A stretch of DNA of 17,075 bases from an uncultured Alphaproteobacteria bacterium (GTDB lineage Bacteria > Pseudomonadota > Alphaproteobacteria > Rhizobiales > Aestuariivirgaceae), in assembly GCA_937868035.1 (NCBI GenBank), contig CALMLK010000168.1:1-17075 (forward strand), read 5' to 3'. This document shows positions 14,061 through 16,578 of the stretch, in pieces (position 1 is the first letter of the stretch; every line of letters starts with the position of its first letter). The notes below the pieces were generated by a model. That model was not told the DNA's origin and searched no databases. It saw only the letters and a program-made list of their open reading frames with translations. The position numbers were made by a program, and so were the translations under genes.

Positions 14061-14384
14061 TCAGAACGGCAGCTTCAGCCCGGGCGGAAGCGGCAGGCCG
14101 CCGGTCACGGACTTCATTTCCTCCGCCGCCGCGGCTTCGGCCTTGGACTTGGCATCGGCATGGGCGGCGACGATCAGGTCTTCGAGGATGTCCTTCTCGT
14201 CGGCCTTCATCAGCGAGGCATCGATGTCGAGGCCGGTGAGCACGCCCTTGCCGTTGAGCGTGACCTTGACCAGCCCGCCGCCGGATTGGCCGGTGACGTT
14301 GGTTGCCTCCAGCTTCGCCTGCATGTCGGTCATCTTCGACTGCATGGACTGGACCTGTTTCATGATGTCAGCGAGATTCTTCAT
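14061..14384 (-). CDS. ybaB: YbaB/EbfC-family nucleoid-associated protein
   Basis: 107 residues, usual length. It begins [18 protein letters not shown], the family's N-terminal helix, and contains [13 protein letters not shown] (about 35-47) and the helical segment [20 protein letters not shown]; the end is [12 protein letters not shown]. It forms tweezer-shaped dimers that bind DNA. The ATG at 14384 has GGAAG six bases upstream; a start further upstream (14552) would read through dnaX in another frame and is rejected. The start overlaps the last 17 bases of dnaX, so coupled translation is likely. Confidence 0.95.
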
Positions 14385-16077
14385 CTGGTTCTTCCGGTGT
14401 GAAGGTGGGGAGAGGTTGCGGTTCCCTGACGCTCGTGATCTCGGCGCCGGGGAAGGTCTTGAGGATCGCCTGCACGGCGGGGTGTTCGCGCGCTTCCTGA
14501 AGCGCCACGGCCTCGGCCGACTTGCGCTGTTTGAGGATCGGGTCGGCGCCACCTTCGCGCGCCACGGTGACGAGGGTGCGGCGGCCAGTCCAGGCTTCGA
14601 GCTTGCGCATCAGTTCATTGGCGAGGCCCGCTGGGGCATCGCGTTCGAGGGCAAATTCGATGCGGCCCTCGCTCACCGAGATGGGGCGGACGTGACGTTC
14701 CAGTTCGGTCTTCAACTTCACGTCGCGGCGCTCGCCCACGTATTTCACAAGGCCTGCGAAATCGGCGAAGGCCACGGGCTCGCGCGGCGATGATGGCGGC
14801 GGGGCTTGCGGTGCGGGCGCCACTGCAGCCGCAAGGCCTGCGCCATTTCCGGCGGCGGAGGCGGAGGCGCCATTGCCCTCGCCCCGCAGCGGCAGCGGCT
14901 TGACGTTGGAGGCGGGTGCCGCCCCTGATTTTGCGATGCGCGCCAGTTCATCGGCGGGCGGCATCTCGACGGCATGGGCGAGGCGGATCAGCACCATCTC
15001 GGCGGATTGCATGGGATTGGCGGCGGTTGCCGTTTCCTGGATGCCCTTCAGAAGCATCTGCCAGGCGCGCGAGAGCATGGGCACGGCGAGTTTCCCGGCG
15101 AAGGCGAGGCCGCGGGTTTTCTCGGCCTCGGTGCGCGCGCCGTCCATCAGGGCGCTGTCCTTCACCAGGCGCAGGCGCGTGACCCAGTGCACGAAGTCGG
15201 CCATGTCGGTGAGGATGGTTTCGGGGTCGCCGCCGCCTTCGAATTGTTGCGCCAGTTCGGCAAGGGCGCGGGCCGGATCGCCGCCCATCACCGCATCGAA
15301 GAGTTCGATCACGCGGCTGCGATCGATCAGGCCCAGCATGTTGCCCACGTCGTCGGCCTTCACCGTGCCGTCGCCATAGGCGATGGCCTGGTCGAGCAGC
15401 GAGAGGCCGTCGCGCACCGAGCCTTCGGCGGCGCGCGCGATCATGCGCAGTGCCTCCTCCTCCACCTCGGCGTTTTCCAGTTTGGCGATGCGGCCGTAGT
15501 GCTGCATCAGCAGCGTGGCGTCGAGGCGCTTCAGGTCGAAGCGCTGGCAGCGCGAGAGAATGGTGACGGGAACCTTGCGGATTTCGGTCGTCGCGAAGAT
15601 GAACTTCACGTGCGGCGGCGGTTCTTCCAGCGTCTTCAGGAGCGCGTTGAAGGCGCTCTTGGAGAGCATGTGCACTTCGTCGATGATGTAGACCTTCATG
15701 CGCGCCTGGACGGGGGCATAGCGCACCGAGTCGATGATCTCGCGCATGTTGTCGACGCCGGTGTTGGAGGCGGCGTCCATCTCGATCACGTCCATGTGGC
15801 GCGACTCGAGGATGGCCTCGCATTGCGGCGTCATCTCCGGCATGTCGATTGCGGGGCCGGGCGGATAGTTCAGCGCCCGCGCGATCAGCCGCGCCGTGGT
15901 GGTCTTGCCGACGCCCCGCACGCCGGTGAGCATGTAGGCCTGGGCCACGCGGCCGGTGGCGAAGGCATTGGTGAGGGTGCGCACCAGCGCCTCCTGCCCG
16001 ATCAGGGCGGAGAAATCCGTGGGGCGGTACTTGCGCGCCAGCACACGGTAGGCGGGCATGGGAGAAGGAGAAGCCAT
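14368..16077 (-). CDS. dnaX: DNA polymerase III subunit gamma/tau
   Basis: 569 residues from the ATG at 16077 (MASPSPMPAYRVLARKYRP); an ATG six codons in (16059) is also possible, and neither has a good Shine-Dalgarno sequence. AAA+ clamp-loader core: Walker A GVRGVGKTT (52-60), Walker B VYIIDEVH (129-136), sensor 1 around FATTE (161-165), and the SRC motif (175-177) with the arginine finger. The zinc-module region (about 71-95) has one cysteine only (C86), against four in the classical protein. After the collar, an Ala/Pro-rich linker and a tau-type C-terminal domain (about 440-569) follow. Loads the sliding clamp in the replisome. First gene of the dnaX-ybaB-recR unit, downstream of the SRP RNA. 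Confidence 0.97.
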   Translation of the reverse strand: MASPSPMPAYRVLARKYRPTDFSALIGQEALVRTLTNAFATGRVAQAYMLTGVRGVGKTTTARLIARALNYPPGPAIDMPEMTPQCEAILESRHMDVIEMDAASNTGVDNMREIIDSVRYAPVQARMKVYIIDEVHMLSKSAFNALLKTLEEPPPHVKFIFATTEIRKVPVTILSRCQRFDLKRLDATLLMQHYGRIAKLENAEVEEEALRMIARAAEGSVRDGLSLLDQAIAYGDGTVKADDVGNMLGLIDRSRVIELFDAVMGGDPARALAELAQQFEGGGDPETILTDMADFVHWVTRLRLVKDSALMDGARTEAEKTRGLAFAGKLAVPMLSRAWQMLLKGIQETATAANPMQSAEMVLIRLAHAVEMPPADELARIAKSGAAPASNVKPLPLRGEGNGASASAAGNGAGLAAAVAPAPQAPPPSSPREPVAFADFAGLVKYVGERRDVKLKTELERHVRPISVSEGRIEFALERDAPAGLANELMRKLEAWTGRRTLVTVAREGGADPILKQRKSAEAVALQEAREHPAVQAILKTFPGAEITSVREPQPLPTFTPEEPDEESR

Positions 16078-16199: not shown

Positions 16200-16217
16200 A
16201 AAAGAGGGAGCGAAACA

Positions 16218-16277
16218 CTCTCAAATCTCGGGAAAAGTGGAAGGCTGGACGGCAACCCGTCAAAAGCTTGTTGGGGT
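16218..16277 (-). repeat. duplicated, degenerate copy of the SRP RNA 3' end
   Basis: Matches 16461-16520 at 56 of 60 positions without gaps, exactly 243 bp away. The four differences fall in two pairs: two convert GAGAG into AAAAG, which breaks the terminator stem, and two alter the CTCG segment needed for the SRP stem. Similarity ends after GTTGGGG; the apical loop and 5' half are absent. A non-functional fragment. Confidence 0.93.
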
Positions 16278-16294
16278 GAGGCGGGCGCTCCACG

Positions 16295-16317
16295 CGAAGG
16301 TCCAGTGGACCTTCGCC
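16295..16317. repeat. palindrome 1 of the cluster (centre CCAGTGG)
   Basis: GCGAAGGTCCA (16295-16305), one base, TGGACCTTCGC (16307-16317): perfect 11-bp arms around a single G. Shares the seven-base centre with palindrome 4. Confidence 0.9.
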
Positions 16318-16329
16318 GCCCGCCGAACG

Positions 16330-16361
16330 CGCGGGAGCTGCCGGAGGCAGCGGGTCCCGCG
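16330..16361. repeat. palindrome 2 of the cluster
   Basis: Outer arms CGCGGGA (16330-16336) / TCCCGCG (16355-16361); inner arms GCTGCC (16337-16342) / GGCAGC (16346-16351) with loop GGA. A three-base bulge lies on one side, making a 32-base hairpin. Confidence 0.88.
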
Positions 16362-16377
16362 CCGGGGCGAAAAGCGA

Positions 16378-16392
16378 CGGACCGCAGGTCCG
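16378..16392. repeat. palindrome 3 of the cluster
   Basis: CGGACC (16378-16383), GCA, GGTCCG (16387-16392): perfect 6-bp arms with a three-base loop. Confidence 0.85.
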
Positions 16393-16393
16393 G

Positions 16394-16418
16394 CACATCA
16401 TGCCAGTGGCATGATGTG
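16394..16418. repeat. palindrome 4 of the cluster (centre CCAGTGG)
   Basis: CACATCATGCCA (16394-16405), one base, TGGCATGATGTG (16407-16418): perfect 12-bp arms. Its centre (16406) is exactly 100 bp from that of palindrome 1 (16306), and the central seven bases are identical. Confidence 0.9.
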
Positions 16419-16460
16419 AGCTTTGAACGCCTGAGCGCAAGCGAAGGCCGGGGCGGATAA

Positions 16461-16482
16461 ACTCTCAAATCTCGGGGAGAGT
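16461..16482 (-). terminator. terminator-like hairpin after the SRP RNA
   Basis: On the minus strand ACTCTC (16482-16477) and GAGAGT (16466-16461) form a 6-bp stem with a ten-base loop, followed by TTATCC. The T-run is short, so termination may be partial and some transcription could continue to dnaX. Confidence 0.5.
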
Positions 16483-16520
16483 GGAAGGCTGGACGGCAAC
16501 CCGTCAAAATCTCGTTGGGG
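16461..16520 (-). repeat. parent copy of the 60-bp direct repeat (SRP RNA 3' end plus terminator)
   Basis: Covers the last 38 bases of the SRP RNA and its terminator hairpin. Same orientation as the copy at 16218-16277. Recombination between the two would delete 243 bp including all four palindromes. Confidence 0.93.
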
Positions 16521-16578
16521 CTGCTACCTTCCGGTCCTGACCCGGTTGGCGAGCACGACGCCTGCCACCAACCTTCCG
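16483..16578 (-). ncRNA. ffs: signal recognition particle RNA, small bacterial type (4.5S-like)
   Basis: The minus strand contains the universal apical hairpin: GGGTCAGG, then CCGGAAGG with the GGAA tetraloop (16532-16529), then AGCAGCCC. The flanks fold into one long helix: CTCG pairs with CGAG, CGTC with GACG, GGCA with TGCC, and the terminal GGAAGG (16577-16572) with CCTTCC (16488-16483). Length is about 96 bases. The RNA binds Ffh and directs nascent membrane proteins to FtsY and the translocon. Its place just upstream of dnaX-ybaB-recR is a recurring bacterial arrangement. Ends are inferred from pairing. Its last part is duplicated at 16218-16277. Confidence 0.9.

What the first reader, a model, noticed from the sequence alone, without database searches (positions are those of the whole stretch)
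16218..16520. SRP RNA 3' end duplicated next to the intact gene
The last 60 bp of the SRP RNA locus (16461-16520, RNA 3' arm plus terminator hairpin) recur at 16218-16277 with 56 of 60 identical bases, no gaps and the same orientation. The copy stops just before the apical loop and carries changes that break both the SRP stem and the terminator stem. A structural-RNA fragment as a repeat is unusual in bacteria. It could be a one-off duplication, or a member of a dispersed SRP-RNA-derived family, an analogy to eukaryotic 7SL-derived repeats that is purely speculative.
Basis: partly seen in the sequence, partly recalled or inferred. Interest (0 to 1): 0.7.

Follow-up and report, generated by a model that had tools for sequence, protein, structure and literature searches.

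The report
Displaced SRP RNA tail fragment
Next to its single intact SRP RNA gene this uncultured alphaproteobacterium carries a second copy of the gene's last 60 or so bases; a sister species has it too, and it looks like an old local rearrangement scar rather than a family of repeats.

Summary
The 3' arm and terminator of the SRP RNA gene (minus strand, 16520-16461) recur at 16276-16217 with 56 of 60 identical bases. The dispersed-family idea fails: in the own genome (79% complete) one SRP RNA gene and only these two stretches were found. An assembly artefact is unlikely: a second species, G007, has the same fragment at the same junction. Of 122 SRP loci fetched, 115 were testable; three had a clear second copy: the window, G007, and G234 of another family, an independent event. 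In G234 a three-gene cassette separates the intact SRP gene from its old 3' end, which still joins the native dnaX-side flank; the same-genus G425 shows the uninterrupted site. In the window the insert is two palindromic REP-like elements, and the copy starts at a CCCC shared by element and SRP gene. Best reading: a one-off rearrangement displaced the original SRP 3' end, now a relic. That the SRP 3' end is a recurrent, perhaps site-specific, insertion point is not excluded, but no recombinase gene was seen in either insert.

The parts
16480..16577 (-). Intact SRP RNA gene (bacterial small SRP RNA), the only one found in the genome
   Evidence: Rfam RF00169, 60.3 bits; only match at E <= 1 in own genome, 150 of 237 candidates scored
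16456..16520 (-). A: 3' arm of SRP RNA from just after the apical loop, plus terminator hairpin
   Evidence: the repeat finder D2; hairpin -5.6 kcal/mol
16212..16276 (-). A': displaced second copy of A, 56 of 60 identical over 16217-16276
   Evidence: same fragment at same junction in G007 C21:5037-5108
16364..16451 (-). B1: dispersed palindromic REP-like element (in the window it ends TTCGCCCC)
   Evidence: other copies in G000 C80, G007 C51, G008 C44, G005 C20, G003 C59
16277..16366 (-). B2: dispersed palindromic REP-like element; its end CTCACCCC overlaps the first four bases of A'
   Evidence: other copies in G000 C80 and C160, G008, G013, G002, G014, G026; the copy next to A' also in G007
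16273..16276 (-). CCCC shared by the end of B2 and the start of A' (microhomology at the junction)
   Evidence: sequence comparison
14368..16077 (-). dnaX (DNA polymerase III gamma/tau), downstream neighbour of the SRP gene
   Evidence: Pfam PF12169, PF13177, PF12362; dnaX found downstream of the SRP gene in 109 of 111 loci, window included

Best explanation
A' is a relic of one local rearrangement in the common ancestor of the window species and G007. The rearrangement put a palindromic REP-like element (B2), and perhaps more DNA, between an SRP gene with a complete 3' end and the old 3' end of the gene, which stayed attached to the dnaX-side flank. The junction fell at a CCCC present both at the end of the REP-like element and just 3' of the SRP apical loop, so the most likely route is a partial tandem duplication by template switching or unequal exchange at that microhomology. 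A' is not an SRP RNA: it lacks the 5' arm and apical loop, and most likely it does nothing beyond perhaps weak termination. Shown: the copy, its sharing by two species, that it was not found in the other genus genomes, the element, the CCCC. Inferred: the order of events, the mechanism and the lack of function.
For: Only two copies found in the genome. Same B2-A' junction in G007. Uninterrupted SRP-dnaX arrangement in G032, G004 and G008. Two differences from A (unit positions 8 and 11) are shared by both A' copies while the A copies of both species are identical over the 41-nt arm, so one duplication before the split is the simplest history. Both A' copies carry GCCGTCCAGCCTTCC, as the two A copies do, where G032 has GCCTGTCAGCCTCCC, so the event followed the split from G032 (or A' was later made like A). 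B2 ends in CTCACCCC in 6 of 11 printed copies. A' continues into CTCTTTTCCC, which G032 also has downstream of its single SRP gene (a 10-nt low-complexity match seen by eye).
Against: A simple tandem duplication across B2 should leave a second B2 after A', and none is there, so a later deletion has to be assumed. A' is nearly unchanged between the species (1 of 41 arm positions) while dnaX four-fold sites differ at 94 of 311, which is not what a long-neutral relic should show: P of 1 or fewer changes is 7e-6 at that rate, 0.02 at the overall dnaX rate of 13%, and 0.11 at 9%, about the divergence of neighbouring B2. An independent case in G234 has no B2-like element at the junction by eye and points to a mechanism that does not need one.
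Confidence: 0.6

Rival explanations
1. The SRP RNA gene 3' end is an attachment site, as tRNA and tmRNA genes are: an element inserted by site-specific recombination brought a replacement 3' end and displaced the old one, then lost its recombinase and cargo. A and A' are the left and right attachment-site remnants.
For: The anatomy fits: the gene is intact, the distal fragment starts inside the gene and runs through its 3' end, and foreign DNA lies between. An independent case exists in G234: 2.0 kb with TetR, glyoxalase and alpha/beta-hydrolase genes, then an SRP 3' arm (28 of 33 identical; 0 of 200 shuffles as good) joined to the native flank seen in same-genus G425. The matches begin at arm base 1 (window, G007) and 7 (G234) after the apical motif.
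Against: No recombinase gene seen in either insert. The viral-contig scan for the alphaproteobacterial SRP 3' arm found 0 (exact pattern only). Three other loci with more than 450 bp between SRP and dnaX (L116, L141, L187) have no detectable arm copy; two more (L108, L197) had no dnaX in the stretch fetched. Paper searches listed no SRP RNA attachment site.
Confidence: 0.2
2. The whole SRP RNA gene was duplicated in tandem; a REP-like element then inserted at the CCCC of the spare copy and its 5' half was deleted.
For: The native downstream flank would stay with the distal copy, as after a tandem duplication. REP-like elements abut many features here.
Against: No 5'-half remnant seen between the SRP gene and dnaX in either species (sequences) or by the SRP model in the own genome (a half gene may score too low). 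Three steps are needed.
Confidence: 0.15
3. A' is kept because it works: as a back-up terminator, or as an alternative 3' arm that pairs with the SRP 5' arm in read-through transcripts.
For: 1 of 41 arm positions changed between species. A terminator-like stem can form in A' of both species. In both species the predicted minimum fold of the long transcript pairs the SRP 5' arm with A' instead of A, by 9.6 and 5.8 kcal/mol over separately folded parts. In G007 the intact gene has no predicted hairpin while A' has one.
Against: The stems in A' are weak (-2.8 and -2.5 kcal/mol), and in the window it is not the minimum fold. Minimum folds of 385-440 nt are unreliable and ignore co-transcriptional folding. 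The other genus loci tested have no A'. Conservation is not clearly better than that of B2 (P = 0.11). Exchange between A and A' could also keep the arm uniform.
Confidence: 0.06
4. Dispersed SRP-RNA-derived repeat family.
For: None found.
Against: Own genome: only the two stretches. Genus: second copy in 2 of 37, same locus. Genome collection scan for the junction: 1 record, the sister (the own genome may be left out of that scan).
Confidence: 0.01

Closest known systems
Displaced 3' fragments of tRNA/tmRNA genes at the far end of genomic islands (recalled)
   Same: Intact RNA gene, then foreign DNA, then a copy of the gene's 3' end in the same orientation; in G234 and probably here the distal copy sits on the native flank
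   Different: RNA is SRP RNA; no recombinase seen; in the window the inserted DNA is under 200 bp and palindromic
GTAG-/CGTC-tagged REPs (Di Nocera et al. 2013, PMC3733652; abstract and passages seen)
   Same: B1 and B2 are dispersed palindromes, often at the 3' end of a reading frame and in several cases supplying its stop codon
   Different: B1/B2 are about 90 bp, at most 3 places per genome found, often end in (C)TCACCCC, and no Y1 transposase domain was found in G000; class not proven
Eukaryotic 7SL-derived repeats
   Same: Derived from SRP RNA
   Different: No dispersion: one extra copy, adjacent to its source

Membership tests
Dispersed SRP-derived repeat family | Many copies at unlinked places | tested here: not met
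   2 stretches in own genome, both at this locus; genus 2 of 37 genomes with a second copy, same locus
Integrative element at an RNA gene | Direct repeat of the gene's 3' end bounding inserted DNA, gene left intact | tested here: met
   window and G007; G234
Integrative element at an RNA gene | Uninterrupted site in a relative | tested here: met
   G032, G004, G008 for the window; G425 for G234
Integrative element at an RNA gene | Recombinase gene in the insert | tested here: not met
   the window's insert is palindromes only; the three genes of the G234 insert are TetR, glyoxalase and hydrolase
CGTC- or GTAG-tagged REP (B1, B2) | Unpaired GTAG or CGTC tag at one end, stem 8-9 bp for CGTC | tested here: inconclusive
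   several B1 copies carry CCGTCGC or ATCGTCGC after a short stem, but element length and ends differ from the description (by eye)
CGTC- or GTAG-tagged REP (B1, B2) | High copy number | tested here: not met
   at most 3 places per genome at E <= 0.001, self-inverted matches left out; diverged copies may be missed and some genomes had more candidates than the 24 scored

The most novel reading that the evidence does not exclude
The SRP RNA gene, upstream of dnaX, is a recurrent insertion point in this order: DNA enters just 3' of the apical loop, the gene's 3' half is restored, and the old 3' half is pushed towards dnaX, as with tRNA-gene islands. The window/G007 and G234 are two independent scars, and a weak remnant in G061 may be a third.
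Probability: 0.2. Interest if true: 0.5.

Novelty: new member of a known kind. Interest (0 to 1): 0.3.

Why it matters
It argues strongly against a bacterial analogue of 7SL-derived repeats here. It also gives a small example, placed on a branch of the genus, of how a single-copy and (recalled) essential RNA gene can take an insertion in its 3' half and stay intact. If the SRP 3' end proves to be an attachment site, it joins tRNA and tmRNA genes as a landing place, and islands there may have gone unannotated because SRP RNA is rarely used as a target when islands are called (recalled, not tested).

Tried and rejected
Assembly artefact: rejected, because G007 shares the junction. Dispersed family: rejected.

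Constraint on A' from its low divergence: tested and not convincing. P = 7e-6 against dnaX four-fold sites and 0.02 against the overall dnaX rate, but 0.11 against 9%, about the divergence of neighbouring B2 (B2 counted by eye, 8 of about 92 columns).

Attachment site in viruses: the apical-motif scan of viral contigs gave 1 contig, a phage's own SRP-like RNA. The 3'-arm scan gave 0.

Decayed arm copies at long SRP-dnaX spacers: L116, L141 and L187 negative. G061 (L148) scored z = 3.7 among 68 loci scored (20 of 26 bases), too weak to count.

REP target rule: at the one ortholog compared (G032), the site without the element reads TCAGCCTTTCTTC where two occupied ones read TCACCCCTTCTTC, so the CCCC is probably brought by the element (one case).

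Limits. One search scored at most 2 candidates per genome and matched 135 of 397, so it cannot exclude distant copies; only G000 had two matches there. In one search the A' query matched only 7 of 37 genomes at all, so absence in the genus rests mainly on own-arm tests in 20 other genus loci. In one search, 111 of 122 loci had the strict apical motif; 4 of the other 11 were tested, leaving 7 untested. Two hits of 15 and 17 nt (L139, L154; E 0.003 and 0.01) were not counted as copies. In one search, loci without the motif, without dnaX, or with too short a spacer were dropped; 68 were scored. In one search, 13 of the 18 element copies printed were checked, and the longest frame among several possible stops was taken, which favours long frames. 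The organism was not identified beyond the sister's record.

Full report
What is there. The window's minus strand carries a bacterial small SRP RNA gene at 16577-16480 (RF00169, 60.3 bits) followed by a terminator-like hairpin. dnaX follows in the same direction (16077-14368). Between them, the last 60 bases of the SRP unit are repeated ungapped at 16276-16217 with 56 of 60 identities; extended, the repeat is 65 nt with a start-to-start distance of 244. The best match of the unit to the rest of the window is 29 of 60.

Is it a family? In the own genome (474 contigs, 79% complete) the 86-bp query finds only these two places, and the SRP covariance model finds one gene. Among 37 genomes of the genus a second copy appears in the window genome and in G007 only (7 of 37 matched the query at all). 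A scan of the named genome collection for the junction pattern returned one record, titled uncultured Alphaproteobacteria bacterium, whose contig has the length of the G007 contig. So at this sensitivity it is not a dispersed family. An assembly artefact is unlikely too: G007 is a different species (dnaX 512 of 568 amino acids identical, 224 of 1704 bases different, 94 of 311 four-fold sites different) and shows the same element-fragment junction.

What lies between. The 180 bp between A and A' consist almost wholly of two palindromic elements, B1 and B2, each found elsewhere in the genus at low copy (B2 in 7 of 37, B1 in 5 of 37 genomes at E <= 0.001, own included). Of the 18 copies printed, 9 end in CTCACCCC (B2 6 of 11, B1 3 of 7) and two more in TTCACCCC; the window's B1 ends TTCGCCCC. 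In 8 of 13 copies checked, a stop codon in or beside the element end closes a neighbouring frame open for at least 150 codons, up to the end of the stretch held. Di Nocera et al. (PMC3733652; abstract and passages seen) describe REPs lying next to the 3' ends of genes, GTAG ones often supplying the stop codon. B2's last CCCC is also the CCCC just 3' of the SRP apical loop (GCAGCCCCAACGAG), so the junction lies in a four-base microhomology.

History. G032, G004 and G008 have a single SRP gene with a short spacer to dnaX. The arm in both A' copies has the GCCGTCCAGCCTTCC of the window and G007 A copies rather than G032's version, so the event most simply followed the split from G032. Two A' changes are shared by both species, so it preceded their split. 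In the window, A and A' also share a terminator loop that G007's A' does not have, and G007's A has no predicted hairpin; exchange between A and A' in the window lineage would explain this (inference).

A second, independent case. I tested each genome's own SRP 3' arm against up to about 8 kb on either side: 122 loci fetched in 122 genomes, window and G007 included, 115 testable. Three had a clear second copy: the window, G007, and G234, which belongs to another family of the order. In G234 the SRP gene is followed by TetR, glyoxalase-type and alpha/beta-hydrolase genes. An arm copy then follows (28 of 33 identical; 0 of 200 Markov shuffles of the region matched as well), directly joined to the flank that in same-genus G425 follows the single SRP gene. 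Of 61 genomes drawn from that family, 58 matched the arm and only G234 had a convincing second place; G434 has a 20-nt match at a contig end. The matched stretches begin at arm base 1 in the window and G007 and base 7 in G234.

How it arose. Two readings fit. One is a one-off duplication at microhomology helped by the REP-like element, which I think most likely. The other is site-specific insertion at the SRP 3' end, which explains both cases with one mechanism but lacks any recombinase. A preserved function is possible but weak: the arm differs at 1 of 41 positions between species, which is striking against dnaX four-fold sites (P = 7e-6), less so against overall dnaX (0.02), and not against the neighbouring element at about 9% (0.11). 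The predicted alternative fold, SRP 5' arm with A', occurs in both species but rests on long minimum-energy folds.

In print. Searches combining SRP RNA with integration site, genomic island, ffs, attB, integrase, prophage, integrative element, or duplication and pseudogene listed no paper whose title or abstract start reports an SRP RNA attachment site or such a duplication. I looked at passages of three of the listed papers, which mention SRP RNA only in genome inventories or a reference; the others I saw only in the listing. The library lacks most subscription journals.

Noticed in passing
L143:642-685 (IMGVR_UViG_3300035698_028977, 46 kb viral contig): An SRP-RNA domain-IV-like hairpin with the conserved apical motif lies between tRNA-Glu and tRNA-Arg genes of a viral contig (partial match to Archaea_SRP, 37.8 bits, below the family cut-off of 96.5). 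A phage-borne SRP RNA would be notable; one paper search listed two papers, neither on it by title or abstract start.
   Followed up: partly
window 16277-16451 and copies in L035, L036, L037, L040-L046, L048, L049: Two families of about 90-bp palindromic elements, often ending CTCACCCC, that commonly sit at the stop codon of a neighbouring reading frame (8 of 13 copies checked). By eye, B2's outer stem shows a compensatory change between the window and G007 (GGCGGGC/GCCCGCC against GGCTGGC/GCCAGCC).
   Followed up: partly
L187, L141, L116 (G405, G112, G049): SRP-dnaX interval widened to 0.9-2.4 kb without a detectable SRP arm copy; L187 contains a reading frame that looks like a sensor histidine kinase and L141 one that looks like an autotransporter (by eye, not searched).
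   Followed up: partly
L148 (G061, same family), 149-174 bases after the apical motif: A weak match to its own SRP 3' arm (20 of 26 bases, z 3.7 among 68 loci scored) that might be a decayed third case.
   Followed up: partly
L047:523-557 (G014 C28): A 35-nt stretch resembling the start of the SRP gene and its upstream edge (89%) on another contig than that genome's SRP locus.
   Followed up: no
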